The notes beneath the pieces were generated by a model that searched no databases, was not told the DNA's origin, and saw only the letters and a list, made by a program, of their open reading frames with translations. The translations under genes were made by a program, and so were the position numbers. From Fomitopsis serialis (lineage: Eukaryota > Basidiomycota > Agaricomycetes > Polyporales > Fomitopsidaceae), in assembly GCF_022376445.1 (NCBI RefSeq), contig NW_025955065.1, positions 1 through 64,000 on the forward strand: a DNA stretch of 64,000 bases. The letters are read 5' to 3'. Shown here one piece after another: positions 5,122-61,700 of this stretch; position 1 is the first letter of the stretch, and the number at the start of each line of letters is the position of its first letter.

Positions 5122-5491
5122 CGGTCGGCGAACACAATTGAATGGTAACGTACACACCCAGTAAGGCCATATGTATCAAACTCCGAGATCATAGCTTACA
5201 AAAGCATCGCAAACACTGGCAGCTCCAACAAGAACAAGACTATCCTAGTCTCCCCAGGCAGACGTAGACAATTCCTTCAACCTTCGTGCCTCACTTGAGC
5301 AAGAGACAGTAAAGAGCGCCGACTCAGAGGCGCGGGCGCGGCAGCCAATCAGGAGCGCGAGAACGCGTCAGTGGCTGCGTGCGGCGCCACCCCGCACTCC
5401 TTCCACTCCTTCTCCCTCCTTCTCCCTCTCGTGGCCTCTCCCGGATCCCCTTTGCGATATTCTTCTGGTTTGTGGCATCTACGTGGCGAAC

Positions 5492-8213
<2,722 letters not shown>

Positions 8214-13453: not shown

Positions 13454-16400
13454 TCAGCCGTCGTTCGGACTCTGGCTGCATGGCTCGCAGTGCGACTTGG
13501 ACAGTTGCGTAGGCGCGTCGCCCGGTGAAGCTAGTCCCTCCTGACTCGGACCCGCGTCGCCGCCTTGATGTTCATCTGCGTGTTCGGTCGCGCCTGCAAG
13601 TCCGCCCTGACAACCCTCGTCCGCGTCCGCGCCGTGCTCAGCTACTCCGCGTGCGGCACCCGAGTCGTCTGCGTGCGGGTCTTCGTAGTCTAGAGACTGC
13701 ACTGACCCAGTCTGGGCCGCGTCCTGCCCTTGCGGCGGTTCGTCGACCGTCGTCGCGGTCACCGGCGGGGCCCCGCTGACGGCTGGCGGTGCGGCGTCCG
13801 TAGCACCGGGTGCATCTTGTGTTGCGTTCGTATCAGCCCCAGCGGCCCCCTTCTCAGCGTCCGGTTCCTGCGCTGCAGTCCCTCTGAGCTTCCGCCAGAC
13901 GTCATGGCTAGCGAGATGATCAGCGACAATTGGACGAGCAGAGTGCAAGGTTCGCCGCTTACATGAACTGCATTATAGGCCGTATCTGACTGCCCGTTCG
14001 CGGCTCCGGTGTGTCCTGCTCGTCCCCAGCTTCCGATGTAGGCTCTGGGCCAGCCGCCTGCGGGGAGTCGACGCATCGATTGCCTTCGCTCAGGGGCTCA
14101 TCTGGAGCGCATTCGAGCCATCCTTCCGAGTCCCTGTTGCAAGTGTCAGTGTGTCTTGGACATTCTGAGCATCGAAGATGACAGACCAGTCTTTCGGGTC
14201 TATCCCATGATAGTGTTCTAGGCACCATTGTGCCACACCCACGCATCCTTGCAAGTTAACACGGAACCCTTGGACTGTCCCTGGCGGCGTCCATTCATCG
14301 CATTCCAGCAGCCACTGGAGTCGCCGCGCGATGTGATTTGTCGACATCAAGGCGTTCCGGCGAATCTCGGTCGTACTCAAGGATCCATAGATGTCGGTTC
14401 TAGTCATACGAGCCAACACCCAATCGAGTCTGTATACGGCCGCGGGAGAGAGGTGTTGCACAGCGTCCTTCAGCTCCTTGCGGCAGAGGGTAGCCAAGTA
14501 CTCGTCGAATCCGCGGAGCATGTCGGCCAGGTAAGCTCCCCTCGACGGCTCGGCTGGCAATGTGTGCTCGTTTCCGACGGACAACATGCATATGGCCAGG
14601 ATGGTCGTCGTGATTTGGATGGTGGATACAGGGTCTCGGTGTGCATATACCGTCGTGAGTGCAGCTTGCACGAGTTCCCAGTCTATGCAGAACTTCAGCT
14701 TACGCCCCTTGCGATTGCAGCGAAAGTTTGCCTTACTTTGAACGTCGAGCAAGCGGTATAACTCGGTATGGGGCGCACAGTCGTATGTTCTTTCCTTCTG
14801 CATGTAGGAGCACTGCTGCCCGTACCTCCAGTCCTCCGCGAGGAAGTCGACTGGCACATAAATGTTTTGTACAACATCCAACGTGGCTCTTCGTCGTACC
14901 GTGGACAGTTGATCATCGTGTAAATGCTGAAACAAAGTCATGCAGGCCTTGGTTCCATCGCCGAGAGGCATAGCACGGATAAGTCCAGCTAAGCAATGGT
15001 TTGTGTCCAAGTCAAGAGGGCTGTCATCAAGTTCCGTATGTGCGCGAGTGAACGTGTCCAGCACCATGCGACCTATCAAAACAGTAGCAGTGCTGTCCAG
15101 ACTATCGTATTGCAATTGATTGCCAGGGGTGGAGGATGACTTCCCTGGCAGTCGCGCAAGTGAATCCGCATACGCTTGACTTGACAATACACTCGTTCTT
15201 GCTTCGCCGATCGCCGCCACCTCTCCGACTCGGACTGCTGGGAACTGAGATTCCTTCTGAAAGCAGACTTTCATCGCATACAGGGTGTCCATGTCCGTAG
15301 TCATGTTGTAAACGTACGAGAACAGTGTTGTCTTGGCTTTCTGGCCGGCAGTCAGTAACCTTCGCAGGCAGAGTTGTTCGTGCCCGAGCCAGTTCGTCTT
15401 CATCAACGTACGCAGCTGAGCTTGACGCTGAGCGACACGTACACGGAGCGCCTCCATCCAGTAATATATGTCATCTGCGAGCGGAAATGAAGTCTCGGTC
15501 GGAGGTCCAATCCCGAGGGAGCTGAGGATTGCGCGACGCAGCCAGAGGACGAACCAGCAAACCATATACTGCGTTGATCTGCAGGCTTGGCATATCCACC
15601 ACGCCTGAAGTGACTTGTACGGGCTGTATTCAATGAGCGCTGGAAGAAAGGAGGTGGCGACGAGGAAGAGAAGCAGTATGCCGACAAAGACCGCGCTCGG
15701 AACAGCGATGTCGGTCCCGATCTCCAGGAGATATCCGATGATGCCCACGAGGAAGAGAACGAGTGCGATCTGCAAGAGGCAAGGGAGGAGGCTCACGATG
15801 GTTTCGACGTTCCACTTGTCGATCGCATCCCGTCGGAGCCGCCAGGTCCACAGTTTCTGAGGCGCACTTCGCAGCCCGGTTTGCTCGACGTGGAAGTTCA
15901 GCCACTGATTGATGGCTAACGCGATAGAGGCGGCGGAAAGGCTGAATATCAGGGCGATGAACCATACGGTGGCGATCCATCGCGGTGGATTGGGCGGCGG
16001 AGAAGGGCTGGACAGTGAAGGGTTCATGGCAGCCGCCAACGATGATGAGCTAGCCGTGACGGCAGCACCCGTCGCCGCGCCACCGAGTTGCGAGGATATC
16101 CGTTCGAGGACCCATAAGGTACGCTCTGATATCTGGGTTTGCTGCTCCAAGATATCTGTGTTGAAGTCCGGAGCTGGCAGCAATCCGGCGTAGTACGGAG
16201 CAACAAAGGCAGTGACGACAGCAGAGAATAAGCCGGCCTATAAGACAGAGTTCAGACCCGCTGCGCCTTGCCGCTGATAAGAGACATAGAGGTGACTTAC
16301 AAAGACCAGTAGTGCATTGATTTCATTCCGCCATCGTTCGACGCGCTCCTTTTCGGTCGACCATGCTTCCTTGGCCAGCGTCGACCAGGCTTCAGAGAGT

Positions 16401-26680: not shown

Positions 26681-29406
26681 TCAGCCGCTGTGTGCGTTCT
26701 GGCTGGCCGACTCGAAATGCGACTCGGGCGGTTGCGTAGGTGTGTCGTCCGGTGAAGCTAGTCCCTCCTGACTCGGCCGCGCATCGCCGCCTTGATGTTC
26801 ATCCGCGTGCTCGGCCGCGCCTACGAGTCCGCCCTGACGACCTTCGTCCGCGTCCGCGCCCTGACGACCTTCGTCCGCGTCCGCGCCGTGCTCAGCTACT
26901 CCGCGTGAGGCATCCAGGTCGTCTACGCGCGGTTCAATGGCATTTAGTGGCTGCGGATGCTCGCTGGTCTGGGCCGCGTCCTGCTCTTGCGGGGACACGT
27001 CGAGCGTCCTAGCGGTCATCGGCGTGGCTCCGCTGATAGCTGGCGGCGCGGTGTCCGTCGCATGGGATGCATCTGGTGTTGTGTTCGAACCAGCTCCTCT
27101 GACTTGCATCTCGATGTCGGGCTCCTGCGCCGTGGATCCCTCGAGTCTATGCACGGCGTCAACGCTATAGCACGGTCGTCAGTGACGATCGAATGGGATG
27201 TGAGATTCCCTGCTTACAAGGGCTGGGTCATAGATCGCGTCGGACTGCCCGTTTGTGGCTCTGGTGGGTCCTGCTCGTCCACAGCTTCCGATGTAGACTC
27301 TGAGTCAGTCGTCTGCGGGGGGTCGACGTGTTGATTGCCTTCGCTCTCGGGCTCATCTGGAGCGCATTCGAGCCATCCTTCCGAGTCCCTGTTGCAAGTG
27401 TCAGCGTGTCTTTGACGTTCTGAGCGTAGAAGATGACTGACCAGTCTTTCGGGTCTATCCCATGATCTTCTTCTAGGTGCTGTTGTGTCCGTCTCATGTA
27501 CCAGTGCAAGTGAACACAGAACCCTTGGACCGTCCCTGGCGGCGTCCATACATCGCATTCCAGCAGCCACTGGAGTCGCCGCGCGATGTGATTTGTCGAC
27601 ATCATGGCATCCCAGCGAATCTCGGTTGTACCCAAGGAATCATAGATGTCGCTGTGGTACATGCGATTCAACACCCAATCGAGTCTGCATATGGCCGCGG
27701 GAGAGAGGTGTTGCACAGCGTCTCGCATCTCCTTGCGGCGGAGGGTAGCCAAGTGCTCGTCGAATCGGCGGAGCATGTCGGCCAGGTAAGCTCCCCTCGA
27801 CGGCTCGGCTGGCAATGTGTGCCCGTTTTTGACGGACAACATGCATATGGCCAGAACGGTTGTTGTGATTTGGATGGTGGATAAAGGGTCATGGTGTGCG
27901 TATACTGCCGTGAGTGCAGCTTGCACGAGTTTCCAGTCTATGCCGAATTTCAGCTTACACCCTTTGTGATTGAAGCGGATGTTTGACTTACTTTGAACGT
28001 CGCGCAGACGATATAGCTCTGTCTGCGGCACACACTCGTATTTTCTCGCCTCCTGCATCGTGTCATCGTACCTGTCCTCCGCGAGGAAGTCGACCGGCAC
28101 ATAAATGTTCTGTACAACATCCAATGTGGCTCTTCGTTGTTCCGTGGACAGTCGATCATCGCGTGAATGCTGAAACAAAGACATACAGGCCTTGGTTCCA
28201 TCAGCGAGAGGCATAGCACGGATAAGTCCAGCTAAGCAACGGTTCGAGTCCAAGTCAAGAGGGCTGTCATCAAGTTCCGTATGCGCGCGAGTGAATGTCT
28301 CCAGCACCATTCGACCTATCAAAGCCGTAGAGGTGCTGTCCAAAACATCAGATTGAAGTTGACTACCAGATGCCGAAGCAGATGGCCCGGACGCCCGTGA
28401 ACGCGGATTTTGTCGCTTTGACAAGGCTTCGAAAACAGTTTGGCCGATTCCTGTCGCCGCTTTGATCGCTCGGGCGATAGGCATCGCTCGCACGCAGGTC
28501 ACCACTGCGCGAAGAACATCTGTGTCATCTGCAATAGAGTAAACGTCCACGAGTAGCGTAGTTTCTTCGCCGTGGGTGGTCCAGTCATCCACGCATAACT
28601 GTTCATGTGCGAGCCAGTCAGATGCCTCTGTCAACGTACGCAGATATGATGCACGCTGAGTGAGGAGACCACGGATCCCCTTCATTCGAAAGTATATGCG
28701 ACATTTGCGATGGGATGAAATCCAAGTCAGACATCGAATCCTCAGGCTGTGGAAGAGGAGCCTGGAGAGGATCATGGGACTCGGATATAACCGCAGAAGG
28801 ACCCAGTAAGCCGCCCACCACATGCGTCTGCAGGCCTGGCAGATCCACCACGTTTGCGGCGACTTATAGGGACTGTAACCAACCAATGCGGGTGACACAG
28901 AAGTGACGACTAGAAACAGAAGCAAGGCGCCGACGAAGACCGTGCTCGGGACGGCAATGTCGAAGCCAAGCTCCCAGAGGTAGCCCACGATGCCGACGAG
29001 GAAGAGCACGAGGGCAACCTGCAGGAGAAACGGGAGGATGCCGACCATGTACTCCACTTGCCACTTTTCCAGTGCATGCCTACGGAGCTGCCACGTCCAG
29101 ACCTTCTGGGACGCATCTTGCAGCCCCGCTTGCTCCGTGGCATGGAAGTTTAGCCATTGGTTCACGGCTAAACCAACGGATGCCGCGCTGAGACTGAAGA
29201 CCAGGGCGACGAACCACAGCGCAGCTATCCAGCGGGGCGCAGCGGGTGGCGAGGGAAAGCTTGTAGATGAGGAGTTCGTGAGAACCGTCGGCATCGGCAC
29301 CGAATTCGAGGAGCTGGCGGCGGCGACAACGGCGTTCGTAGCCGTGCTACCGAGCTGCGCGGATATGCGCTCGAGGATGGCCGTGTTGCAGCCCTCTCCG
29401 GCATAT
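26681..29406 (-). pseudogene. DUF6535 protein, 3' half (gene B), interrupted by the KDZ element
   Basis: Exons by comparison with gene A: 29406-27442 (5' end cut by the insertion), 27388-27218 and 27164-26681, all open and in phase. The retained part begins NTAILERISAQLG, continues through the membrane block (RWIAALWFVALVFSLSAASV, LVLFLVGIVGYLWELG), and ends in the Asp-rich tail. The DUF6535 signature exons are missing here but occur, same strand, at 51.31-52.2 kb beyond the inserted element. A 27-bp unit is tandemly duplicated in the tail (GADADEGRQ twice, 26834-26887). The predicted N-terminal MYKYAG is element sequence and not the real start. Disruption was probably recent enough that the reading frame is still open. 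Confidence 0.8.
26834..26887. repeat. 27-bp tandem duplication in gene B tail
   Basis: Two identical 27-bp units encode GADADEGRQ twice. Gene A has a single unit. Confidence 0.9.
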
Positions 29407-29459
29407 TTATACATTATATACTGCTGACTGGCGTCCGAGTGCGATACATATACCGCGCT
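29407..29459 (+). repeat. Left terminal inverted repeat of the KDZ element
   Basis: Aligns without gaps to the complement of about 51254-51306: ATACAT, TACTGCT and ATACATATA sit at equal spacing. Confidence 0.7.
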
Positions 29460-30788
29460 GCGTGGTCCTGGCCCATATCATACATCCTACTGTATCACCC
29501 TTCATGTATCATGCGATGCATCCATACCATCTCCCCATACATTACGTGCAATGATATGGCCCCTAGTACTGTGCCTGCAGTCATCACCACAATGTATCAT
29601 GCGACGAGCGATGTACATTTCCCTCTCGCAATACATTATACACGGTGTAGGCAGTCGGCACGTGGCTACGTGACGTGGGTATTCCTACCATCACCCATTA
29701 CTTATACCCACCCCATGCGCCCTATCCTTCCCTTTCCCTCTCCCCCTCTCCTCCTACTACCAGCGCCTGCACGTCGCCTTCGTCGGGACCAGTACCCGCC
29801 ACCTTCATTTGTGCCCGCCTACGTACCGGCCAGGCCGCCGCTTCCCAGGGACCCTCCTGAACCCACATTGAGTCGCCGCCTTTGGAAGGGCCTGCCCGTA
29901 CGCCGCCTTCACCGCCGCAGCCTGCAACTTGAACAGGACATCGCCTTTGTCGGGACTCAGGGCGCACACCGACGACATCTCAGGTGAGTATAGGAACTTC
30001 TGTCACAGTAATGTATGTCTAAATCTGTGTACTTCAGTATTTGTGCGACCACAAGGTTACACGTTGCGACCTTTTCCGACTTCGCACTATAGACAGGTCA
30101 CAGGGCGCGCTTCACTTGTCCGTCTCAGACTCTCGGAGTACTGGTGTTTGCGCGGGGTCATAAGTGAGTAATATATCATCGACTCGACACGTGGAGCGCA
30201 GTGTAATACATCGCAGCTACCCATACTATGCATCATGTTTCGTTGTGCATACATGAGGCAGGCTTGTGGAGGTGCACGACGTACTGACGCCCGGGTCGTA
30301 CATCGCACAGAGGGAGTATGTAGTACCATCATGCATCTGCAGAGTGGACGCAGGGTGTATAAGAATAGGACGTAGACAGTCATTATATTAATGTTGTACA
30401 TCGGTTGTACATCGCACATGGTGAATGGTTCATGTATCATGATGATGCATCATGCGACATGCATGCTCGACATTGTACAGGTACAAGTCGTGACCACCAT
30501 ATGCAGTTGTTAGATTGATTACAAGACGGTCAACATCACGCAGTCAGTCACTAAGCTCAACCTGCAGCATTATAACCTAGTATTGCAGTTCGCAGTATAA
30601 GGGCACAGACGGACTACGAAGAGCAACACACCACACAGAATCAATAGAAAGTACTATGATAGACGACTGCCAAGATTGGCTACTACGTCGTTCTTGGGCC
30701 GTTAGGAAGACAAAGAGTGAACACGGATACAGGCACCAGAAGCCACAGTCCAATGCAAGTCATACGACACGTACATGGAACCAGGCTA
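29460..30788. other. Left subterminal region of the KDZ element
   Basis: It holds many variants of ATGTATCATGC, ATGCATCATG and ATACATC in both orientations, for example near 29.50, 29.60, 30.21-30.24 and 30.43-30.46 kb. Such clusters are typical transposase-binding subterminal repeats. A Pro-rich plus-strand ORF (29.72-29.99 kb) is not convincing as a gene. Nothing else is assignable. Confidence 0.6.
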
Positions 30789-48613: not shown

Positions 48614-51253
48614 GAACTCGTACCTTAGTCGTGGATTAATCCTTTCGGTCGGCGAAGCTTTCAATTGGATTACAGTACGGACTGGTTCAGTGGTCACTAC
48701 GTGAGATTTGGCAGTGTCGTGCATCTAGTTCACGACGACTTCCATACCTTGATCTCTGTCTCATGAGTCTCATCCCATCGTCTCGCAGAGAGATGTGCCC
48801 AGTGGGATACGTCTCCTAGTATCCACCCATAGCTAATTACTCATGGTGAACAATCACGCGCTTCCCCGAGCTGCCACGCAGTCTACATACATGTACCCAA
48901 AACTCAACTCTGCGCAGCTGAACGCTGAGCGCTGAGCGCCCGAGGTGTGGTACCGATGCGATCTCCTAAGCGCTTGCCCACTACGCGTTGGACACTTCCA
49001 AGTGTCCGACCGAACCTACTATGACTGCGAACAGCGACTCGAATGCCCGTCTGAGTTCATGATCACGATTTGGGAACCTGTGACTGAATGGTATGCCCTG
49101 TCAGTCTACGGTTATGTTCTATACCTGGCAGCGCTAACATTCAATAGGGTGTTGTGCTGGCACATTGGCACCGTCTTGGTGCTTGCGCCTAACTACATGA
49201 CGTGGCCTCAGTACAGGCGAGGTTCCTGACTTGTATGTGTCTCGGTCATCTAGTATGGTACGGCCCGCTTACTGACCCACGCGACAGGCTGAGGTGTGGA
49301 CATTTCCCGTAACTGCGAGGAACCCGGAATGGCCAATCAGGGAAGCATGGGAGCCACAGAGTTAGCTGTTGTATTAGCCTTTCGACAGTGTCTGATTGTA
49401 AGTCATACTTGATTGGAACGAAGGATGTCAGATCCGAACCTAATCACATTATTTGATACAGTCTGCAAGCATGATGCCTGAGCGGTGTCTCCTGAAATGA
49501 TAGGCTTCTTAGGTCAGTTTTCCCGCGTCACACGTCGTCACTGAATCTTCCGTCAGTGCAATATGTATGAGACTTACCAGTGATGGGTCGTAATCTAACA
49601 TTCAAAGTTTAGACAGAGACACCTAGTACACGGACTCAAAGTCACGACCATTACACGAACCAGCCGCAAATTCGCGCTCTATGCCACAGCTCCCCTGACG
49701 GGTGTGTACATATACTCTAAGAAGAAGTCCGAATCAGCCAGACCTCGCGCTACCATTACCGCCGAAGCAACCGTGACATATGCCGCGGCTTCCTTGGCAG
49801 GTAGATGTATACTCTTGATCCGAATCACCTAAGTAGACCCCGCGCTGACATTACCACATGCAGGACGGCGCGTATTCATTTGAGGTGAGTTCATCTGATT
49901 AAGCTAAGGTCCGATAAGTCGGACAGTGCCATTGACTCAGATCGCTGACTCTCTGCCAAAGACGCGACAATGCATCGACATCTCCTGACCGACTTAGGAA
50001 GCCACCACCTTCCGCGGGTGCTACCTACCGAATGACGTGGTTACAACTGCGTGAGGGGCGGCAAGCGTTACAGGAGACACAGTGATCCTGAGTCAGTGCC
50101 AGTAACAACTAATAGACTTGGAGCTGAGGTCGTACTACTACAGATACGACAAGCCGGCGTAATGGAAAGGAGCCGAAAGGAGCCGACATTCCATTCCCGG
50201 TTTGCTAGCGGTGGAGATCTACGCCACGATATCATTTGGCGACGGATCCATAGGAAATGAAGGAGCCCGAATTGGTCGGTGATCCTCAATACGTCTCGTT
50301 CAGCTTCTCGGTGATCTGTCACGCGTCACGACCGAGCCTTTCACGAACGTGCACGCGCAAGAGGTCGAATTCGTGTCATTGTGATGCGCCGTGATGTTCG
50401 GAGGCTGTTTCAGCGGTCGACATATGGAGCCTGAGAGATGTGGGTCACGGGTGCTGACGTCTGGGTGGTGGCTCATGAACAGTGAGCAGAAATCGACGCC
50501 GGGGCCCTGCGTGATGAACTGATGGGGCATTCCGACTAGAATCTACTGCCCGATTCGGGAGCACAGACCACTTCTGGCCGCGCCTGAAGTGTGGCCGAAT
50601 GAGGGTCCCCGCTCTCCCTACTCCGGATTCTGGCAGGGCACGTGCACGGAGCGATGTATCAGAGTCGTGGCAGGGAGCATAGCATATCGGAAAGGTGATG
50701 TATGAGACTTGTGGTGTTATATCTGTGCTGATGACGTACAGGACTCGGAAAGTATTGTCGGGGAAGGTCACAACGGTAATACATCGCGCCTGCGCTGACC
50801 GCATAGGAGGCGGCGTGGCGGCAGAAGCCTGAAGGTGCGGGAGGGGATGATGCATGGCACCAGTAATGCATCATGGACGCAGATGATGTACGAGGGACTA
50901 CAGCAGCGAGAGGAGATGATCTATGATGCTCGCCGCGGTAATGCATCACGCCTGCGCTAATGAGTAAATGGGGATGCGGTGATGGAAGTTGCGGGAGGGG
51001 ATGTACTACTACTGATGGGCCTCCGAGTCGCATATTGGTGATGCATCATAAAACCTGCGCTCACGATGTACAGGCCCGGTGGCGGTAATGCATTAGGTCT
51101 GTGCATGATACATGACAGGTTGCAGGTCATGTATCATGCCTGCGGGGGCAGATGTATAACGGGACAGGCTGCAAGGTGAGTACTACCACATTCGGTAGGC
51201 AGCCGATGTAACATGCATGCAAGCAGGTGATGTATGAGGGTACATGGCTAAGG
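48614..51253. other. Right subterminal region of the KDZ element
   Basis: The 48.6-50.4 kb segment holds no recognisable gene. From ~50.65 kb to the end there are many dispersed variants of GTAATGCATCAYGCCTGCGCT, GATGTATGA and CATGTATCATGCC in both orientations, mirroring the left end. Confidence 0.6.
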
Positions 51254-51306: not shown

Positions 51307-52210
51307 CTCTGCCAGCAACAGGTGCGTGTTGGGGTCAGGTGCCGGCAGCAACACGGCATAGTACTGAACCACGAAAGCAGTTAGGACGGCGGAGAACAAG
51401 CCGGCCTACAAGGGAATCATCATTATCTCGGTTGCTCGTTGCCGGATCACTATGTAGAACGGAGGCGTGAGCGTGACTCACAAAGACGAGGAGTGTGTTG
51501 ATTTCATTCCGCCATCGTTCTGCGCGGTCCTTTTCGTAGGCCCACGCCGTATCTGCCAACCTCAACCACGCTTCTTCAGGCTTTTGTGGGTCCCGCGGCT
51601 TCATGTACTTCTCGAATACTTTCTCCAAGGCACTTTCGTCCATCACAGCCGGCGGCGTTTGCGGCTCCCGCGGCATCATGAACTTCTCGAAGACTCTGGT
51701 CAGAACAACCTCCATTTCCGACGCCGTTATTGCACCCTTCGCCGAGTGGTCTGCCGACTCAGACGAATGCTTCGTTCCACTAGCATCTGGCAGCTCATCC
51801 GAGCCCTTCTGACGTACGTTAGGCCTTGGCACAGTGACACAGTCAAGAGATCGCCGACCACGCTCACATCATTTGGAGCCGACGAGGAGGCTCCCGTAGT
51901 GCCCGCACCGACCGCGTTGGATGCCTGTGTAGACGGCTAAGTGATCCCGTTCGCTTTTCAAACTGCTTATACTCACTGATAGCTCAGAGCCGCTGTTTTC
52001 GCCAGAGTTTGTTCGACGGATGGCGGGATTTGGCGAAGATGTTGGCTTGGGACCGACAGTCGTTGGTTCCCCTAGGATACCTTGGATGGACCGGACGGAA
52101 CTTGAAGAGTGGCCCGACCACTTGTACGCATTCCACGGATACAGGGAGATACAGTCAGTTTTGCTGCTGTGCGAGCGAAGAATAGCAATGCGCACCTCGG
52201 ATGGGGCCAT
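51307..52210 (-). pseudogene. DUF6535 protein, 5' half (gene C), interrupted by the KDZ element
   Basis: Exon 3 ends at 51482 with AEERWRNEIN-type signature (YEKDRAERWRNEINTLLVF). Exon 4 starts at 51405 with AGLFSAVLTAFVVQYYAVLL, continues PAPDPNTHLLLAE and meets the element end. The intron between them is at the same place as in gene A. Upstream sequence (PNPAIRRTNSGENSGSELS, possible start at 52210) resembles a first exon, but the 5' structure is uncertain. Exon 3 has an internal duplication (VFEKFMMPREPQ and VFEKYMKPRDPQ). It ends where gene B begins, on the same strand, and its upstream flank matches gene A's, so it is taken as the other half of gene B. Confidence 0.75.
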
Positions 52211-55108
52211 GATGACGCCGGCTGGTGAGCAGTGTAGAGAGATCCAAAGGGGCGGAGAGAGCGAGAAGACAGCTGAGAGTACGTATGGCGGACGAGGACG
52301 CACAACCTCGTATAGCTCAAGGTGGGGAATACGCGACGACTCGGAGCTGCTCACAAAAGCGCGCCGAGGACTGCACCTTGACGATGCGAGGACGTATGCC
52401 ACTGGGCTCGAGTCAATGTTGCCCCAGTGTCGAGTCCGCAAGGATCCGGACGCTCGCAGACACGTAAGGGAAGATACTTACATGCCATTGATTCCGAGAT
52501 AGCATCGCCGGTGACGCCGTTACGAGTTATCTAGTTCTGGCGGCAACATTAATGTACCTACAGGAAAACCATAACTAGACCAGGGTGTACTGAAGCCCAT
52601 GCGCGGTCTTCGTCAACGCGCAGAAAGCACTGAGGGGCTGCATGTGTACCATCCCTCTGTGCGACTGAGGGCGAACACTGACGAGAGTTCGCTGGAGCCG
52701 TCTACAAATTTTAGCGGCAGCAGCATATCCTGAGTCGAGACAGAGGCATAGAAGCTGTCAGGCGTGTCATGTCAATACCATGTGCACGTTGACGTCGCAA
52801 GCGCGTTCTATGCACAACGACTCGGAGATGATGGGACTGAGAGCGGCAGCACTGTTTTCGGCGTGAGCGGTCCATCACAAGAGAACGGGCATAGCTCACC
52901 AGTCATGACTACGCGCCACTGGGACTCTGACACGCGGGAATTACCTAAATGATGCCGCTCGATAGTACCTTTGCCTGGGTCAACCTCGTAGGTATCCCAC
53001 ATACGAAGTCCAGCTGCGCAAGTGCTCGCTGATAGATCGCGGGCGTGAGTAGGGAACTCGGCACTAGTATGTCGGGGGCCACTCACGTCGAACATAGAAG
53101 CTCGTGTCATTGCTTCTGTGGCCAAAGCCTCGAGTGTGTGGCCCTCAGCTCGTGTCAAGTGTCTAGGGTCCACTTCTTCCGGTGATTGGGCGGATACACT
53201 GAGCGGCTCCGTTGAACGGGCACTGGATGTTCCGCGCTGGCCTGATACGATAGCTACCTCACGGACCACACCCGCTCGCGGTGGTCTTGGAAACCGGTGC
53301 GAGACTTAGCGTGAGCAAGGATGAAACAGCATAGCTTGTGCATACCTTGCAATGGTACTCGACTGAAACGCATGTAATGCAAGAGCCCTCCGATGACTCG
53401 TCTGATCGCGCCGTTACTGTCTCGCAGGCTCGCGGCGCGGCGACGGTGCAGGGAAGCCGCCCGGGGATATCAGAGAGACTCGGACCTTGACCCAGGCTAC
53501 AATTGTGCAGCGTCGACCATCCAGCCTTGTTCAGGACACAGGTCGCGGTCTGAGACGATGCGCCGATTCAAGTGCAAGTGAGCATGATTTGGCGCCCGCG
53601 TCCCGTACGCGTCCCGCCACCCGTCCTCCTCGCGCCACCGCCTGCGTGTGCCAGTACATACTAGTTGCTTCTGCCCGCAACCTATGTCTCGACACGGCTC
53701 TCGCTTCATCGCAGAGCCCGCTTCCTGCATACGTGCTACGCACGACTATCTCTTCCAATTCAGCTTCTCCCTTACCGCTACCAAGGTCGCGACATGGCCG
53801 GGACCGCCGACCGGGCTCCTATGCTGAAAGGATTCGAGGAACTGAGGCTGTCGTTCGACTCATATCCTTCCTCTAGCTCTGATACACCTTATTGGCTGTT
53901 TTTTGCGACGCTCGTTCTTCTCTGCGCTCAAACGACATCCCGGTGCAAGAAAGCGCAAACGTTCGATCTGCTTTGAATCAGTATGCCATGGCGTGGCGAC
54001 GCAGGGGTGTCCGCTCGACGTCAGTACGAGCATACGCGAGGAGGATCTACATCGGTGAACGTACGTTATGACTTACTATGTGATGTGCATCTACTAACCC
54101 ATGTAGCCTTTCTTCGGCTAGCTGAGGTCGCCGCCGTGACGGTAGCGACACTGCACGCCCGTGAAGGCATTCAGCATACAAGGGGGTGAGACCTGCTTTA
54201 GGATACCGCGTACTCATCTCTATATGTCGCGGCGTGGAGGAGGAGTAGACCGGGGTCGGGCTGTCGGCTGTCAGTCTTGGGACGAAGTCTTAGAGTCCAC
54301 GACCCGCCCATTCCTCTACTACCCGTCCGCCACATAATTGCGTCCTGCACCATAACTAGCGACTAGTAGTCAGCTTAGACCAGGACCATCGTCATCACTA
54401 CCACTGCCCGCCGGTGGCTTACGTCCGGTGCGTTCCTATTTCCCGTGTATGGGTGTTGTGCTCATCCTCGATCTACCCTCCGTGGTTCAAGTTCGGGGAC
54501 TCCTTCGTCTTCTGCATAGGTGTCGTCTCCTGCACTAGTAAGTCATCGAGTCTCAGGGTGTTATGTAAAATACTTGTCACAAAGAACGCGACGTCCGAGG
54601 CCTAGTGAACCCAGAGATCGAAGCCGCATGTGGTACGTCACCTCCACCACAAAGTGTCTCCTTCCGCTGACACTGATAATCCGGCTTAGGGTTCATCAAG
54701 ATTCCATGCAATGCTAACTGATGGACGAGGAATACGGGCGACCACCTGCACAGTCCCCGAGGGAGGTCCTTAGTGTCTCAAGCCCTATCGACTGTGCTCA
54801 TCGTGCTCATCCCTTACGACACCTTATGGCACGATTTGTCTCGTGGACAGTCGATTCTTCGTCCGACTCTTGAAGATGCGCGCGAGACGAAGGTATGGGC
54901 GGCATGCTCACGCGTCCAGGTTTCATTTCGGACCTGCTATGATCCTGAATCGTGATGGTAGATTCGGCTCAACATCGCCTGAATACTCACGTCCTCGCGG
55001 GCTTCATTCGCCCTCGTACGCTCGTTACCGTACGCTTCTCTCGTCCCAGACAGCCCTCTCGCACACTGCGCCTGACTCCTATCGTGCCATAGGCACGTTT
55101 ATGCGTGG
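52211..55108. other. Upstream flank of the split DUF6535 gene; no gene
   Basis: The 52.5-53.4 kb segment matches parts of 16.9-18.4 kb (GCCTCGAGTGTGTGG and neighbours). The 53.4-55.1 kb segment has short ORFs without recognisable domains. Confidence 0.5.
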
Positions 55109-55113
55109 TACCT
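55109..55113 (+). repeat. Target-site duplication, left (TACCT)
   Basis: TACCT directly precedes the 5' LTR and is repeated at 61384-61388. Confidence 0.93.
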
Positions 55114-55315
55114 TGTAACGGATATTCCCGTTACGGTATGTCTCGTCTCATATGTTTGTCATTGTTTGCCTGAGGGCTCGTATGGCGCGCCTGTGCGCCT
55201 ACGAGACCTCAGCCTTTTACCTCGTCACCGCCTTTGTATGCACTCTGTAGACAGTACTCCTTGAATAGAGACTGGGTGCAGCGCATACGAGGCACGACGA
55301 GTAAGGCGCCTTACA
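55114..55315 (+). repeat. 5' LTR (202 bp)
   Basis: Begins TGTAACGG, ends CGCCTTACA, and is identical over all 202 bp to 61182-61383. The first bases can fold (GTAACGG/CCGTTAC). Confidence 0.97.
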
Positions 55316-55454
55316 CTTTTTTGCGCTCCAGAAAAGCTTCTATCTCTCTGGGGACTATCTACTCTAGGCAACAAACTCTCGAACCTCGAAATTTGACATC
55401 AACAAACTCTATGCTACTTTGATCATCCTCTGGCCAACTCGACAACTCGACAAG

Positions 55455-58133
55455 ATGTCCGAGTCGACCAACACCCCGTCCGCACCTTCGCGAGGCAGCC
55501 GCGGGTCCCACAGTGGAACCCGCAGCAAGCTGAAGGCGTTGCGTGCGGAAGTCCGAGCAAAGCTCGCCGCAAGTCAAGAGCGGATCAACAAAGCCCTCGA
55601 GGAATCCAAGCAACTCGAGGCCGAACTGCTGGCAACGGTCGACGCCGCTCTGTCCGAGGCCAGCAGCCGCAGTCGGTCTTCTCGCACGAAGACCACCCGG
55701 ACTGAGTCCTCTCACCGCGAGGACTCAGCCGGAGCCCTCACAGAGCAGGCGCCGTCCGACCGTGAGGTCGAACAGGCACCGCGCACTGAGCGGCTCGAGC
55801 CCAATGTCGAGCCCGCTCAAAACCGCCCGGAGACCGACTCTCCACCTGCTTCGACCCAGCCGATGAAGCTCGGCACCACTCTGAGGAGTGGTGAGCGCGC
55901 CGAGCTCGACAACGTAGCCGTAGTCGAGCTCGTGCCTGGATTGAACGAGCAGCACCAGGAGCTGACTCGCATCAGCACCCGGGAGGGCATAGGCACACAG
56001 TACTACAGTAGTACTGTGTGCAGTGGGAACGAGCCCACGCGTGTAGATACGCTCGTCGCGTGTTCAGAGATGAGCCGCGACACAAAAAATATATATTCGT
56101 TGTCGAATGACGTGTGCGCCATGTCGAGCAACTTGCTCGACGCGACGCGCGACGCGCTCGACCCTACGGGCGTCGAGCGTCACGGGTCCGTGGCGAGCGC
56201 CCTGAGTGCTAGCGCTCACCGCACTGCACTCGACCGCCACCACCGACTCCACGTCCTCGACCACTCCCACTCTCTGGGCAGCCACCTCGAGCGCCCGTCT
56301 GGCGAACCAGACACGCGCGCGGCCCCAACGCGAGTGCGAACTCGCGTTCGCGAATGGCTGGCTGACCTACCGCCAGTCCAGTCAGTGGCGACCGACGACC
56401 TGGTACCTCACGGTACCAGATCGCCAATTCCTCCCTCCCCGGCTCCTCACCTCACCCCTCTCGACTCGCGTCTTGACTCTGGCAACCAATACCGCGGCTC
56501 TGGCGACACGCAACCCAGCCGCGCGACCCAGGACTTGAACACTGCGCGTTCAAGCCCAGCGCCGAGCTGCAAGACCGAGCGGACCACGAGGAACGCGGAT
56601 CGTGGAGGCGGCGAGGAAATCCCGAAGGAACGAGAAGGGTGCGAGGAAGGCACGAAGGGAGAGAGGGAGGAAGGGTGCGGGGCGAGCAGGGAAAGCGAGC
56701 AGGAAGACTCGCAAGTCGAAGGTACGCCCATGCTGGACGTACCCACCTCGCCTCCGCCTGTGCCAGTACCCCCGCCAGCGTGCGTATCGATGAACACGGA
56801 GTTCGTCGAGCGTACCGCTGGTCACGGAACCAGGTACGACTGCGAAGTCGTACCTTCCGCTCCGCAAGATAGCACGACTGTGCTACGGGACGACCTCGCA
56901 GTCGTACCGTCCATCTCGCAAAGCGACACAGTGGACGCGCAGCAGTGCACGTCCAACGTGTCCCATTTGTCCATCACCGATCCATGGAGAGCGAGTACGC
57001 CGAGCTTGATGCTCGACGTACACGCTACCGACCAGCACGAAGGGTCGAGAACTGAAGGTACGCCCCTGATGGACGTACCCATCTCGACATCCTTCTTGTC
57101 CGGGGTCGAGCCCGCTCTTCAAGAGAGCACACCCTTCAATTCGCGAGGCGGCACGATGGACATGCAGCGATGCATGCCCAACGTGCCCAATTGGACCTCG
57201 ACTGCATGCGATGCAGCGTGTACGTCTAGCTCGTCGCTCGACGTACACGGCGTTCGTGATCACCATCCGCCGCATGATACTGACAACTCGTCGGGTAGCC
57301 ATACTGCGCGACCAGCGGCGCATCAAGAAGGACTGCACGTCCTTGCAGAAGTGCAGGCCTCCGACAGTGTCAGCACAGCTGAACCTCCCTTGGTTCAGCT
57401 GGCCGAGCCATGGAGCGACCCCGACGATCTCTCCCGCAACGCGCTCGATCCCGCAAGGTTTCTGGCGAGCGACCCTCAGTGCGCAGCTGAACCATCCACG
57501 GTTCAACTGGCAGATTCCCCGGACGAACTCGTCTACGACCGCCAATCGCCTGGTCACGACGTCGACGCAGAAGGCTGCCGAACCGTCACGCATGCGACCC
57601 AGGACGCACGTATCGCCCCAACGGACGTGCGACAGAGCGACCGTCCATGCGCAGCCGAACCGCGCGCGGTTCAACTGCTAGACTCCATGGACGATTCCGA
57701 CTTCGACACCTCCAGCAGCCACCAGCCGCGCGCGAACACCATTCAAGAAGACTTGCACTTCCTGTCGGAAGTGCAAGCCTCTGGTCTCTTCGAGAAAGCT
57801 CAGCTGGTCGCGGTTCAGCTGGCAAGCCCGCGAGACGACCTCGACCGGCTGGACGAAGCTGCGGACTTCGCTCACATTCAGAGCAGCAACCCATTGCGCT
57901 TCAACTCGGTGCAGGACTGCCGCATCGCCCCGACGGACGTGCGGCCGAGCAATCGCTCGTGCGCAGCTGAACCGTACGCGGTTCAACTGGCGGGTCCTAC
58001 GAACGATCTCGACCTCAACCTCGACCTCTCCAGCCACCACTACCCCCTACTCGCGACCCCGGCGCCCCGGCGAGCGCGCAGATCGAAGCTCGCGTATTCC
58101 CAACGAATGCGCGAGCTCGAGATCGCGACTTGA
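55455..58133 (+). CDS. LTR-element ORF1 (coiled-coil N-terminus, repetitive, Gag-like position)
   Basis: The start chosen is ATG 55455 (MSESTNTPSAPSRGSRG), which gives 892 aa; the open frame extends to 55419. Residues ~25-75 form a heptad-like coiled coil (LKALRAEVRAKLAASQERIN), similar in position and style to Gag N-termini of fungal Ty3 elements. The rest is low-complexity Ser/Asp/Pro-rich with recurring short modules. These include AEPPLVQLAEP, AEPSTVQLADS, AEPRAVQLLDS and AEPYAVQLAGP; EGTPMLDVP and EGTPLMDVP; and IAPTDVR twice. Each module coincides with a DNA hairpin. No enzyme domain was found. It ends at TGA 58131-58133, overlapping the next ORF in the -1 frame. Confidence 0.6.
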   Translation: MSESTNTPSAPSRGSRGSHSGTRSKLKALRAEVRAKLAASQERINKALEESKQLEAELLATVDAALSEASSRSRSSRTKTTRTESSHREDSAGALTEQAPSDREVEQAPRTERLEPNVEPAQNRPETDSPPASTQPMKLGTTLRSGERAELDNVAVVELVPGLNEQHQELTRISTREGIGTQYYSSTVCSGNEPTRVDTLVACSEMSRDTKNIYSLSNDVCAMSSNLLDATRDALDPTGVERHGSVASALSASAHRTALDRHHRLHVLDHSHSLGSHLERPSGEPDTRAAPTRVRTRVREWLADLPPVQSVATDDLVPHGTRSPIPPSPAPHLTPLDSRLDSGNQYRGSGDTQPSRATQDLNTARSSPAPSCKTERTTRNADRGGGEEIPKEREGCEEGTKGEREEGCGASRESEQEDSQVEGTPMLDVPTSPPPVPVPPPACVSMNTEFVERTAGHGTRYDCEVVPSAPQDSTTVLRDDLAVVPSISQSDTVDAQQCTSNVSHLSITDPWRASTPSLMLDVHATDQHEGSRTEGTPLMDVPISTSFLSGVEPALQESTPFNSRGGTMDMQRCMPNVPNWTSTACDAACTSSSSLDVHGVRDHHPPHDTDNSSGSHTARPAAHQEGLHVLAEVQASDSVSTAEPPLVQLAEPWSDPDDLSRNALDPARFLASDPQCAAEPSTVQLADSPDELVYDRQSPGHDVDAEGCRTVTHATQDARIAPTDVRQSDRPCAAEPRAVQLLDSMDDSDFDTSSSHQPRANTIQEDLHFLSEVQASGLFEKAQLVAVQLASPRDDLDRLDEAADFAHIQSSNPLRFNSVQDCRIAPTDVRPSNRSCAAEPYAVQLAGPTNDLDLNLDLSSHHYPLLATPAPRRARRSKLAYSQRMRELEIAT

Positions 58134-60466
58134 TTGCTGCACTACCGTTAGTGCAGCAGCCGGCGCTTACGGACCCCGACACGCCAGAACGGTGTCCCGA
58201 CCGTCAACCCGACGAGAACTTCACAGTTCTCGGCGAGGGCTCACTCCTAGGGGACCCCACCCAACATCCTATCGACCTCCCCGCGGCCCCCGACACCCAT
58301 GGCGACTACGACAGGCCCATCGAGTCGGAGACCGCGAGCACACCCCGGAGGTCGCGCGCAGGACGAACGAAGGATCAGGACGGGGATGAGGGAGACGTCG
58401 ATGAGGTCGTGAAGGCAGGAGAGGCAGACGGGAAGATTCCGGTAGACGGAGGAGAGGGGGAAGGGTGCAGGGCAAGCACAGAGGACGAACGAGTCGAGCG
58501 GGATAGCTCGACGACAGGTACGTCTCCTTTAGGCGTACCTAATTCGCCCCTACCACCATCTCCGGCCCCCCTACCACCATCTGTGACGACCACGACAACC
58601 AATGCGGTTGTCGTGGCAGCCACCACGTACGACGAGGGCACGGATGACCCAGGAGGCGACCTACAGGTCGCACCTGGCACAGCCAGGCAACGCGGTACGA
58701 TCGGCGAGCGAGCGAGCTCATCCGATGTATCCAACACGGTCACGACTCATGCACAGACGTCGGGCCTCTCGACCGACGTCTATGCTAAGGAGTTCGGCGG
58801 CGACTCGGACGGCGAGTACCTCGCGGTACTCGCCCCGCCACCATCACCTACTGTACTACTACCAGCGTCGATCGCGACCACCCGGAAGGTCGTCGCAATC
58901 GACGGTGGTCCGCCCACATCACAAAGCGACAGCGTAGTCGCATCAGCAGCCATGCATGGCGGTGCGTTCGGAACGCATACTACATGCACTACCGACTCGC
59001 CCCGCCTCGTCACGACTGGTGCGGCACTGCCATCGAGCTCTATGCTCGATGTAGGTGCCGCTGAACATCCTCTTAAGGAGGAGTGCGAGTACCTCAGGGA
59101 ACTCGCACACCCACTGGATTCGCACTCAGAGCATACGGCAGACGGACATGATTGTCCGACTGCCAAGGGCGAGTACCATGAGGTACTCGCCAACTCATCT
59201 TCTTTGGTTGCAGTGCCACCGCCGTGTCGCGCTGGGACGAAACATTCAATCGTCGTGAACGAACGTCAGGATGGGAAAGCGGATGAGCCCCAGTCGGTAG
59301 ATCGCGAGCAGTCGACCGAGACGTCTACCATGGTAGACGTACGACAGGCTGCACCCGAGAACGAATGGCGACCGACGGGACGCTACGTGCTACCAGCACG
59401 TCGCGCCCACGGGCAGCACCTCGAAGACCGACGTGGACTGGCCGCGGATTACGGCGACGAACACCACGCCAAGTACCGCGAGGTACTTGACACATTCAGC
59501 AAACAAGACCAGTACCTGCTGCCGAGCACATCCAAGACGGATGTGCTGCCTTCTTCCCCGGACCCAGCGCAGTCAAATGAAGGGACGGGGACTGACGAGG
59601 TCACGTCGGTAGTTCCAGGGCAAGGGACCATTGACGAGGACGAATCCTCGTCCTCGCGGGTACAATTACCTGGACCGTGTGGTGTGGCGGGTGCATCCGG
59701 CTTACTGGGTGATGTGCCCGCATCGAATGACGCGACGACCAGGGCGTCGTCGCGCGCCCGTAAGAAGGAACAGCCAGCGCGAGGGCTGGACTCATTGGAC
59801 TCAGCACAGGGAGGAGCTACCTCCGCCGCGAGGGGGGACACCCTCCTGAGAGGGGAAGGGAGCGGGGCCTCAAGCGGCCACCGCTTGTTCCACACCACCA
59901 CCAGTACATCACACCGAGATGTACTGGCCTCGGATCCGGCAGTGATATGGACGCCAAGCCGTGAGCTTGACGTACAGGCTATCCATGGGGACTCGACACG
60001 AAGGTCAGCTACTCGCACATCGAGCCAGGGACTCAATGTGCAGTACACTTCACGAGTGGCCAGTACATCACATAGTGTTGTACTGGGATCGGACGCAGTC
60101 ACGGGCCGTACATCCAGCGTTGAGCTCGATGTACGAGCTTCACGTCGAACATCGAGACAGGTACCACCTGTACCACGCGTGTCGAGCGATCGACTCGACG
60201 TACAGAATACAGGTGACCGTCGCGGCCATGACCTTACTCGGGAAGCTAGTACCTCGCGCCGCGACGTACCAGCATTGAACCGAGTACCGACTGCACCGAA
60301 TCAGCCAGTGACTGTTGATGGAGTCAATGGCCCATGGACAAGGTGCTGCGTGAGGAGTGCTTCACCCTCCTTGCAGACCAACTTGACCTCGACCTCGACG
60401 AGGCTGAGTTTGCGGCGAGTGCTGGCGAGTGGGACATTTGGGCTCACTGCAAGAGTCAGCACTTAG
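58130..60466 (+). CDS. LTR-element ORF2 (-1 frame relative to ORF1, repetitive)
   Basis: This ~778-residue open frame overlaps the ORF1 stop, and its frame is also open upstream of 58130, so there is no obvious AUG. Expression could be by -1 frameshifting or splicing. Recurrent modules are GEYLAVLAPP, CEYLRELAHP, GEYHEVLANS and AKYREVLDTF; SSMLDVGAA, SRELDVQAI, SVELDVRAS and SDRLDVQNT; and SHRDVLAS, SHSVVLGS and SRRDVPAL. No RT (YxDD), integrase or protease motif is visible. Protein function is unknown. It may exist mainly as sequence carrying RNA structure. Confidence 0.5.
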   Translation: MIAALPLVQQPALTDPDTPERCPDRQPDENFTVLGEGSLLGDPTQHPIDLPAAPDTHGDYDRPIESETASTPRRSRAGRTKDQDGDEGDVDEVVKAGEADGKIPVDGGEGEGCRASTEDERVERDSSTTGTSPLGVPNSPLPPSPAPLPPSVTTTTTNAVVVAATTYDEGTDDPGGDLQVAPGTARQRGTIGERASSSDVSNTVTTHAQTSGLSTDVYAKEFGGDSDGEYLAVLAPPPSPTVLLPASIATTRKVVAIDGGPPTSQSDSVVASAAMHGGAFGTHTTCTTDSPRLVTTGAALPSSSMLDVGAAEHPLKEECEYLRELAHPLDSHSEHTADGHDCPTAKGEYHEVLANSSSLVAVPPPCRAGTKHSIVVNERQDGKADEPQSVDREQSTETSTMVDVRQAAPENEWRPTGRYVLPARRAHGQHLEDRRGLAADYGDEHHAKYREVLDTFSKQDQYLLPSTSKTDVLPSSPDPAQSNEGTGTDEVTSVVPGQGTIDEDESSSSRVQLPGPCGVAGASGLLGDVPASNDATTRASSRARKKEQPARGLDSLDSAQGGATSAARGDTLLRGEGSGASSGHRLFHTTTSTSHRDVLASDPAVIWTPSRELDVQAIHGDSTRRSATRTSSQGLNVQYTSRVASTSHSVVLGSDAVTGRTSSVELDVRASRRTSRQVPPVPRVSSDRLDVQNTGDRRGHDLTREASTSRRDVPALNRVPTAPNQPVTVDGVNGPWTRCCVRSASPSLQTNLTSTSTRLSLRRVLASGTFGLTARVST

Positions 60467-60950
60467 CTGTGGGCATGCCATCGAGGAGATGTCCCCGCGA
60501 CCGAGGACATATTCTCGTGCAGCTCGTCGAGCATGGGACCACTTCCAGAGGGAGCTGGAAGTGGTTCCACTCGAGTTCGACCCTCGACTCATTGCACCAC
60601 TTCCTATGGAGATGGTGCGACATTGGGCCTACAACAAGCTGGGATGGTTTGTTGTACCACCTCGCAGTCGACCTCAGGATGACTCCGACTGGTACAACTC
60701 CTCTGATGAGGAGCCCCGTACCACAACTCGCGAGGATTACTCTGACCATGTTGAGTCAGAGTATCTCTCCGAGTCTGAGCATCATAGCTCGTGGGATTCT
60801 TCGGATCCAGGTTCTGAGGGGACAAACTCAGTAGTAGTCTCTGACTACTACGAGCAGTCCGAGATGGAGGATACTTACAGTTCTTCTGCACTATCTGCTG
60901 AAGACGAGGGTAACTCTGAAGATGCAGACTACTACTCTGAGTCCGAGTAG
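60334..60950 (+). CDS. LTR-element ORF3 (C-terminal acidic segment)
   Basis: The frame from 60334 reads VLREECFTLLADQLDLDLDE and EFAASAGEWDIWAHCKSQH. After another frame change near 60.47 kb it reads EEMSPRPRTYSRAARRAWDH, FQRELEVVPLEFDPRLIAPL and WAYNKLGWFVVPP. An extremely acidic Ser/Tyr/Glu tail ending ADYYSESE follows, with a stop at 60948-60950. The two halves are more protein-like than the end of ORF2. The real product may therefore switch frame through short introns or frameshifts that I could not settle. Confidence 0.42.
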
Positions 60951-61170
60951 TAGCCTACCTGCTGGTTGCACAACTCTGTCGAGTGGTGTATGACAATGGT
61001 GAACGGTCGTGTCTGCTCACTGACGCGAAGTAGTTTGTCGCTGTCTACAGTTCGACATCACCCTTGTCTTGCCAATTGCTACCACCGTCGGGTTGTTGCA
61101 TGTACTAGTCCTTTCCTTTTCCTTTTCTCTATGTTTCTCTGGTTATCGCTGGGACCCGTGGTCGTGTCCA

Positions 61171-61181
61171 GTGGGGGAGGG
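61171..61181 (+). other. Polypurine tract of the LTR element
   Basis: GTGGGGGAGGG lies immediately before the 3' LTR. This is the expected plus-strand priming site. Confidence 0.8.
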
Positions 61182-61383
61182 TGTAACGGATATTCCCGTT
61201 ACGGTATGTCTCGTCTCATATGTTTGTCATTGTTTGCCTGAGGGCTCGTATGGCGCGCCTGTGCGCCTACGAGACCTCAGCCTTTTACCTCGTCACCGCC
61301 TTTGTATGCACTCTGTAGACAGTACTCCTTGAATAGAGACTGGGTGCAGCGCATACGAGGCACGACGAGTAAGGCGCCTTACA
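61182..61383 (+). repeat. 3' LTR (202 bp)
   Basis: Identical to 55114-55315, and followed by the TACCT duplication at 61384-61388. Confidence 0.97.
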
Positions 61384-61388
61384 TACCT
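61384..61388 (+). repeat. Target-site duplication, right (TACCT)
   Basis: Direct repeat of 55109-55113. Confidence 0.93.
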
Positions 61389-61499
61389 CATGTCGCCCGA
61401 TCGGTATACTTACATATTCCATCGTAAAATGAACCCACGTATGCGTGCAGCGTCTTCAAGCCATGTTTGAAACGGCTTTGTGTCCAGGTGCTTAAGCTG

Positions 61500-61700
61500 T
61501 GAAGCATGTGAAGGGAAGGAGATGGTCAGGAACTCTGACACAGCGTCGACTACTACGGAACTAAATTTAGCGTCCGGGAAGCGCCTGAGATCACATCTTT
61601 ACCGGTCGTCGGCGGTTGTACCCGACCAGTCATCGCTCCTCCGCAGAACACCAGCAGCCCACGTACGGACAGGACCGATGTCATCGCATGACGGCATCGG
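61500..61700. repeat. Dispersed repeat family R, fragment R3
   Basis: Shares GGGAAGGAGATGGTC, AAATTTAGCGTCC, AAGCGCCT-AGATC, GGCGGTTGTACCCGACCAGTC and GACCGATGTCATC-like blocks with 11.2-11.43 kb and 22.92-23.05 kb. Confidence 0.6.

What the first reader, a model, noticed from the sequence alone, without database searches (positions are those of the whole stretch)
55860..60955. LTR element whose coding interior is a dense array of perfect hairpins
I located 32 perfect inverted repeats with stems of 8-13 bp and loops of 15 nt or less in 5.1 kb. Coordinates (stem length): 55874-55893 (8), 55901-55932 (10), 55994-56020 (13), 56123-56141 (8), 56155-56179 (8), 56327-56348 (9), 56400-56419 (8), 56832-56855 (10), 57217-57249 (10), 57376-57401 (10), 57752-57777 (11), 58087-58117 (8), 58135-58158 (10), 58213-58232 (8), 58590-58616 (11), 58755-58781 (9), 58811-58834 (10), 59031-59051 (8), 59083-59108 (8), 59168-59191 (10), 59321-59340 (10), 59470-59489 (8), 59525-59547 (9), 59635-59656 (9), 59731-59754 (9), 59901-59927 (10), 60060-60086 (8), 60107-60135 (8), 60539-60564 (10), 60738-60763 (9), 60832-60852 (9) and 60929-60953 (9). 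A uniform-base estimate predicts about one. Many shorter or one-mismatch stems fill the gaps. Loops are often 4 nt, and at least four are GCGA (GNRA class). The genomic RNA would be a string of hairpins. Possible roles are packaging or trans-mobilisation signals, Dicer substrates, protein-binding arrays, or a structured RNA with only incidental coding.
Basis: seen in the sequence. Interest (0 to 1): 0.9.

Follow-up and report, generated by a model that had tools for sequence, protein, structure and literature searches.

The report
Retrotransposon gene built of conserved hairpins
A family of mobile elements in a wood-rotting fungus carries one long gene packed with dozens of short hairpins that evolution keeps paired, on either strand, without one obvious purpose; this is unusual and not yet explained.

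Summary
The LTR element at 55114-61383 has 33 perfect hairpins (stem >=8, loop 3-15) in 55860-60955. Dinucleotide shuffles give 1.3 (max 4), synonymous-codon shuffles 0.6-1.2 per ORF; outside the element the window has 13. I fetched 22 copies (this one included; 19 aligned, 76-100% alike) from the genome (Fomitopsis serialis). Each has 20-35 stems. Seven of 22 keep one ORF of 1686-1865 aa; no reverse transcriptase domain was found.

Stems are under purifying selection: divergence 0.077 in stems, 0.187 elsewhere, 0.235 in loops, and at four-fold sites too, except in the N-terminal part. Changed pairs are compensatory. Pooled differences between near-identical copies are not depleted in stems, which argues against a mutational cold spot. 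The structure starts and stops with the ORF, save one hairpin just behind the stop codon.

The simple sense-RNA reading is not supported. G.U is not preferred over A.C (interior OR 0.73, CI 0.52-1.03), folding z is equal on both strands, GNRA loops lie equally on either strand, and a few loops are inverted between copies. Template switching is the likely editor. What the hairpins do stays open; I favour structure of the element's nucleic acid in both polarities.

The parts
55109..55113 (.). 5-bp target-site duplication TACCT, left
   Evidence: read directly; same 5 bases at 61384-61388
55114..55315 (+). 5' LTR, 202 bp, TG...CA
   Evidence: 100% identical to 61182-61383
55316..55454 (+). untranslated leader, hairpin-free (z +0.14; 0 stems in 1493 nt over 11 copies)
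55455..58133 (+). first part of the ORF (starts MSESTNTPSAPSRGS...); frame broken in this copy; 1686-1865 aa stop to stop in one frame in 7 of 22 copies
57971..60466 (+). second open part of the same coding region, shifted frame
60408..60950 (+). third open part: conserved acidic C-terminal domain (non-stem dN/dS 0.24 in intact copies), densest hairpins (7.6 stems per kb in 60301-60953 over 11 copies)
55702..60988 (.). hairpin array: 33 perfect stems in 55860-60955, a 10-bp one at 55702-55728, and one behind the stop at 60969-60988 (one mismatch here, perfect in 8 of 11 copies); 72 distinct hairpin positions across 11 copies
60951..61181 (+). 3' untranslated stretch, mean z 0.05
   Evidence: 60954-61181
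61173..61181 (+). purine tract GGGGGAGGG abutting the 3' LTR (probable plus-strand primer)
   Evidence: sequence; role inferred
61182..61383 (+). 3' LTR, 202 bp
61384..61388 (.). 5-bp target-site duplication TACCT, right

Best explanation
A recently active, non-autonomous LTR retrotransposon family (probably Ty3-like) whose single long ORF is an array of short Watson-Crick hairpins kept by purifying selection. SHOWN: the excess, its near-restriction to the ORF, depletion of changes in stems at all codon positions, compensatory pairs, no wobble preference, GNRA-type tetraloops equally on both strands, loop inversions at a few loci. INFERRED: (1) template switching between hairpin arms during copying of the element perfects arms and inverts loops, a process known at short inverted repeats; (2) selection keeps the hairpins because they structure the element's nucleic acid in both polarities it passes through as single strand (genomic RNA and minus-strand cDNA), compacting or protecting it, while the leader and 3' end stay unstructured so that priming and translation start can work. 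Step 2 is the weakest.
For: Excess over controls. Copies. Selection: B-C divergence at stems defined in a third copy 0.077 (16168/210159 comparisons) vs 0.187, loops 0.235, flanks 0.178; four-fold sites 0.073 vs 0.170 (middle) and 0.065 vs 0.196 (C-terminal part), but 0.151 vs 0.161 in the N-terminal part, i.e. no effect there. Against a cold spot: five non-overlapping close pairs pooled 13/4584 in stems vs 48/21513 outside; two pairs about 2% apart 16/1880 vs 204/8681. Pairing: relative to matched non-stem pairs, single changes occur at 0.21-0.33x, double non-WC at 0.21x, double WC at 0.78x (conditioned on a perfect stem in the reference); counted as events 0.49-0.67x, 0.57-0.63x and 0.95x; of pairs with both columns variable (112), 65% WC vs 55% (max 58%) in 500 permutations and 20-25% when slid. 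Strand symmetry: GT 99 vs AC 131 events, null 1740:1868; mean z -2.08 on + and -2.11 on - over 8 copies; tetraloops at stems >=8: 32 GNRA on +, 29 on -, of 131. Inversions: exact at 3 of 70 loci, 0 in reverse, complement and flank controls, plus an 11-of-12 inverted loop seen in the alignment. ORF confinement. Template-switch precedent: PMC8604942, PMC8794818 (passages read).
Against: No transcript, small-RNA or structure-probing data. Selection on both polarities was not tested directly. Arm correction alone does not lower stem divergence in a simulation (0.18 at all rates), so it cannot be the whole cause. G.U is tolerated in RNA, so lack of any wobble preference is odd if genomic RNA matters at all. 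Two of the five close pairs (L009/L010 1 vs 16, L023/L024 0 vs 6) point to depletion even when young. The permutation does not keep phylogeny, and its '>=2 WC types' count (49) did not exceed the permuted maximum (50). One of the three exact inversions (alignment column about 2571) lies in a repeat-rich stretch where the aligned hairpins may not be the same module. Loop changes at GNRA loci keep the class about as often as chance would by my own rough count, so loop selection is not shown. No RT-bearing partner with the same LTR was identified.
Confidence: 0.4

Rival explanations
1. Sense-mRNA structure: hairpins stabilise or regulate the translated message (structured coding region, open leader), as described for structured CDS mRNAs. 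Loop orientation is irrelevant and wobble is disfavoured for an unknown reason.
For: Structure begins with the ORF and ends at it save one hairpin behind the stop; leader and 3' UTR have z near 0. A highly structured CDS gave high expression through functional half-life (PMC6883848, abstract and start of introduction read).
Against: G.U not preferred over A.C: interior OR 0.73, CI 0.52-1.03. GNRA on antisense as often as sense. z equal on both strands.
Confidence: 0.25
2. Template switching alone: an error-prone copying process makes and re-perfects palindromes and flips loops; no function.
For: Loop inversions; strand symmetry; short loops; precedent in yeast coding inverted repeats; that paper also takes conservation of short IR regions in proteobacteria as a sign of repeated template switching.
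Against: Would leave stem divergence at background (simulation) but it is 0.4x. Pooled young differences are not depleted in stems, older ones are. Compensatory changes are mostly transitions and mostly single pairs, not clusters. The leader is free of the structure.
Confidence: 0.15
3. DNA-level palindromes: double-stranded sites for dimeric proteins, or cruciforms, in the integrated copy or cDNA.
For: Strand-symmetric; loop inversion would be neutral.
Against: No shared half-site: GTAC and the other palindromic 4-mers are not strongly enriched (at most 1.63x), arms differ (128 distinct arms in 11 copies). Spacer varies 3-15 with a peak at 4, as for single-strand hairpins. Confinement to the ORF is unexplained.
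Confidence: 0.12
4. Both sense and antisense transcripts are structured RNAs (bidirectional expression).
For: More GNRA than GNYA loops (by eye), on either strand; equal z.
Against: No transcript data; few independent loci (9 plus and 7 minus by commonest loop at stems >=6); no wobble bias in the expected direction within the sense- or antisense-GNRA classes (10 GT:12 AC and 5:5).
Confidence: 0.08

Closest known systems
LARDs and TR-GAG-type non-autonomous LTR retrotransposons (recalled classes; names seen in search listings)
   Same: LTRs, TSD, no reverse transcriptase; here also an ORF. That LARD interiors were described as having conserved RNA structure is recalled, not looked up.
   Different: A ~1.8-kaa ORF packed with short hairpins (72 positions over 11 copies) with a strand-symmetric signature; LARD interiors are described as non-coding (recalled).
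Genome-scale ordered RNA structure of some RNA viruses (recalled; phrase found in listing)
   Same: Pervasive structure across coding sequence.
   Different: Here local perfect stems, no wobble preference, both strands equal, some loops inverted between copies.
Template-switch-made inverted repeats (S. cerevisiae coding IRs, PMC8604942; RNA hairpins, PMC8794818)
   Same: Arm homogenisation and spacer inversion, also 4-bp spacers in coding DNA (passages).
   Different: There 39 genes and ten spacer inversions over yeast strains; here 72 hairpin positions in one ORF family, with stems under selection.
Repetitive hairpin-forming elements of sponge mitochondria (PMC2800124, listing and start of abstract only)
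   Same: Many hairpins in one genome.
   Different: Those are described for mitochondrial intergenic regions; here in a nuclear retrotransposon ORF with no shared motif.

Membership tests
LTR retrotransposon | direct LTRs TG...CA, TSD, purine tract | tested here: met
   202-bp identical LTRs, 5-bp TSD TACCT, GGGGGAGGG before 3' LTR; 15 of 19 copies with two LTRs have identical pairs over the BLAST-matched span
LTR retrotransposon, autonomous | encodes RT/integrase | tested here: not met
   no Pfam match above cut-off in the open parts of this copy and 0 families at E<=1 in the 1861-aa ORF of copy L010; none of the listed RVT_1 places (best candidates only) lies inside the copies
Ty3/Gypsy partner | RT-bearing element with the same LTR | tested here: inconclusive
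LARD | large non-coding interior (recalled) | tested here: not met
   ORF of 1686-1865 aa in 7 of 22 copies; dN/dS 0.22-0.24 at its ends
TR-GAG | encodes Gag | tested here: inconclusive
   no Gag domain by Pfam; C-terminal domain resembles an ORF upstream of RT in decayed Gypsy-like elements; structure model too poor to judge (pLDDT 47.5)
Selected sense-RNA hairpin array | compensatory pairs with G.U tolerated better than A.C | tested here: not met
   compensation yes, wobble preference no
Dicer/miRNA-like hairpins | stems of about 20 bp or more (recalled) | tested here: not met
   perfect stems 8-13 bp in this copy; small RNAs not testable
Known structured RNA | Rfam match | tested here: not met
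   0 matches at E<=1 in 54900-61700
Template-switch inverted repeats | spacer inversion between relatives | tested here: met
   3 of 70 loci exact, controls 0, one of the three doubtful as to homology; one further locus by eye

The most novel reading that the evidence does not exclude
A retrotransposon family has evolved a polarity-neutral hairpin genome: its coding region is selected to fold as arrays of short perfect hairpins in whichever strand is single, with template switching as a built-in repair and shuffling engine that keeps arms perfect and flips loops, so one sequence must satisfy a protein frame, sense RNA and antisense DNA at once.
Probability: 0.25. Interest if true: 0.9.

Novelty: new variant of a known kind. 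Interest (0 to 1): 0.72.

Why it matters
If right, it is a natural case where base pairing, rather than protein sequence, shapes much of a long ORF, and where the pairing carries no strand preference. With more than 20 copies of known relatedness in one genome it makes a testable system for how hairpins arise, are repaired and are selected, and for what non-autonomous LTR elements need from their interior.

Tried and rejected
Chance, base composition and codon usage. Protein-level cause of the palindromes: the codon register of the palindrome axis takes all three values. One DNA-binding motif. Mutational cold spot. Arm correction alone. Known Rfam RNA. Ascertainment bias: the first conservation estimates condition on the stem being perfect in the reference copy; they were redone with stems defined in a third copy. 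Wobble split by loop orientation gave nothing. Paper searches in the held library listed no report of such an element (listings of the best rows only). Of papers I saw passages of PMC8794818 and PMC8604942 and the abstract and opening of PMC6883848; subscription papers and preprints are not covered. Structure prediction of the 210-aa C-terminal domain was poor (pLDDT 47.5, pTM 0.34), so no fold search was made.

Rows dropped: of the 22 fetched copies, three with one LTR (L012, L029, L030) were left out of the alignment; 19 aligned, 11 (one per 95% cluster) used for covariation; L039, L040, L043 used only for loops or mosaic checks. In one search a stem column is one in a stem of at least three copies; columns in one or two were left out. 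The five young and two older pairs were picked by me, after seeing them, from the 12 pairs so that no copy is used twice within a group.

Full report
What is there. Window 55114-61383 is an LTR element: 202-bp LTRs, 100% identical, a 5-bp duplication TACCT, and a purine tract before the 3' LTR. The window lies in a 66.2-Mb genome in 806 contigs. Protein look-ups of an intact copy gave four proteins (7989 candidates scored), all named Fomitopsis serialis (Polyporales), three of them on contigs whose lengths equal contigs of this genome. From the first search I fetched 22 copies, this one included, and from an LTR search more places. Nineteen of the 22 have both LTRs, and 15 of those have identical pairs over the matched span, so most insertions are young although the copies differ by up to 24%. 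Seven of 22 keep a single ORF of 1686-1865 aa, stop to stop; the window copy is split into three frames. No Pfam domain was found in it or in the 1861-aa ORF of copy L010. Outside stems the protein's ends are conserved (dN/dS 0.22 and 0.24) and its long middle weakly so (0.64); in stems the values are 0.42, 0.16 and 0.82 for N-terminal, C-terminal and middle parts.

The hairpins are real. 33 perfect stems in 5.1 kb against 1.3 in dinucleotide shuffles and 0.6-1.2 per ORF in synonymous-codon shuffles; 13 in the window outside the element. The 22 fetched stretches, flanks included, hold 20-35. The excess is concentrated in loops of 0-15 nt and peaks at 4; beyond 30 nt it is about 1.2-3-fold. Mean RNA folding z per 100 nt is -2.08 on the plus and -2.11 on the minus strand over eight copies (range -1.65 to -2.39), about 0 in two control stretches.

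They are under selection. With stems defined in one copy and divergence measured between two others, stems differ at 7.7% of sites, loops 23.5%, 15-nt flanks 17.8%, the rest 18.7%. The same holds at four-fold sites in the middle (7.3 vs 17.0%) and C-terminal (6.5 vs 19.6%) parts, but not in the N-terminal part (15.1 vs 16.1%). Pooled over five pairs whose ORFs are under 0.5% apart outside stems, stems show no depletion (13/4584 vs 48/21513), though two of the five pairs on their own do; two pairs about 2% apart are depleted (16/1880 vs 204/8681); the two groups differ (p 0.003). So stems do not seem to mutate less; the changes are removed in lineages that keep transposing. Assembly errors could contribute to the young differences.

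Pairing is what is kept. Against matched non-stem pairs, single changes are at 0.21-0.33x and double non-Watson-Crick changes at 0.21x, but double Watson-Crick changes at 0.78x. The event-based count is milder: 0.49-0.67x, 0.57-0.63x and 0.95x. Compensatory changes are mostly transitions, mostly one pair at a time, in many hairpins. Where both columns vary (112 pairs), 65% of cells pair against 55% under permutation, but the number of pairs with two or more pair types (49) is within the permuted range (max 50).

No strand is preferred. Single changes to G.T number 99 and to A.C 131 (null 1740:1868; OR 0.81, CI 0.62-1.06; interior pairs 0.73, CI 0.52-1.03). Of 131 tetraloops on stems of 8 or more in 11 copies, 32 are GNRA on the plus and 29 on the minus strand, against 3.3% and 2.6% of all 4-mers; these counts repeat the same loci over copies (by commonest loop, nine plus and seven minus of 61 loci with stems of 6 or more). 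At three of 70 loci the loop of one copy is the exact reverse complement of another's (GCGA/TCGC twice, GTGA/TCAC), with none under reverse, complement or flank controls; one of the three lies in a repeat-rich stretch where the aligned hairpins may not correspond. At alignment column 3696 a 12-nt loop matches its inverse at 11 of 12. Arm homogenisation and spacer inversion by template switching are described for coding inverted repeats of S. cerevisiae (PMC8604942, passages) and the mechanism is proposed for RNA hairpins (PMC8794818, passages). A small simulation shows that arm correction alone leaves stem divergence at background, so selection is needed as well.

Where. The leader has no stem in 1493 nt over 11 copies (z +0.14) and the 3' UTR z is 0.05; the ORF parts are at z -1.0 to -2.3, lowest at the protein-conserved 3' end; the LTR is at -0.8. 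All eight stems found in the 3' UTR are one hairpin about 18 nt behind the stop codon, perfect in 8 of 11 copies with an A-T/G-C compensatory difference between them. This confinement fits a translated message, or an element whose priming ends must stay open; it sits awkwardly with strand symmetry, and no explanation I have covers both well.

Setting. Three decayed elements (contigs C516, C412, C40) have a relative of the C-terminal domain followed by RT and integrase matches, which makes a Ty3-like relationship likely. Ten further places share only the leader and the 3' UTR, without a listed RT hit inside. I did not fetch them.

Verdict. A real, selected hairpin array in the ORF of a non-autonomous LTR element: confidence about 0.85. 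The mechanism I favour (structure useful in both polarities, edited by template switching): about 0.4.

Noticed in passing
G000 contigs C516 (~4428-7968), C412 (~258152-261738), C40 (~51850-55443), minus strand: Decayed Ty3/Gypsy-like elements with a relative of this element's C-terminal domain upstream of RVT_1 and Integrase_H2C2 matches.
   Followed up: partly
G000 C301, C257, C223, C128, C77, C623, C327, C58, C53, C704: Ten places, mostly 6-7.5 kb long, sharing only the leader and 3' UTR with this family, no listed RVT_1 hit inside: perhaps a second non-autonomous family.
   Followed up: no
L041:5692-6090: Minisatellite with the hairpin CCTACCCAG-CCAGCC-CTGGGTAGG found five times at 75-bp or 150-bp spacing.
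   Followed up: no
L040: Rearranged copy: aligns to the 22 copies in eight blocks; the 746 nt between them still hold 4 of its 26 stems.
   Followed up: partly
alignment of 19 copies: Copies look recombinant: L018 is 0.90 like L017 and 0.91 like L027, which are 0.82 like each other.
   Followed up: no
window 14090-16237 and 27228-29477, minus strand: Two ORFs with DUF6535 (PF20153), 715 and 749 aa.
   Followed up: no
window 51103-51139: A lone 14-bp perfect hairpin outside the element, longer than any in it.
   Followed up: no
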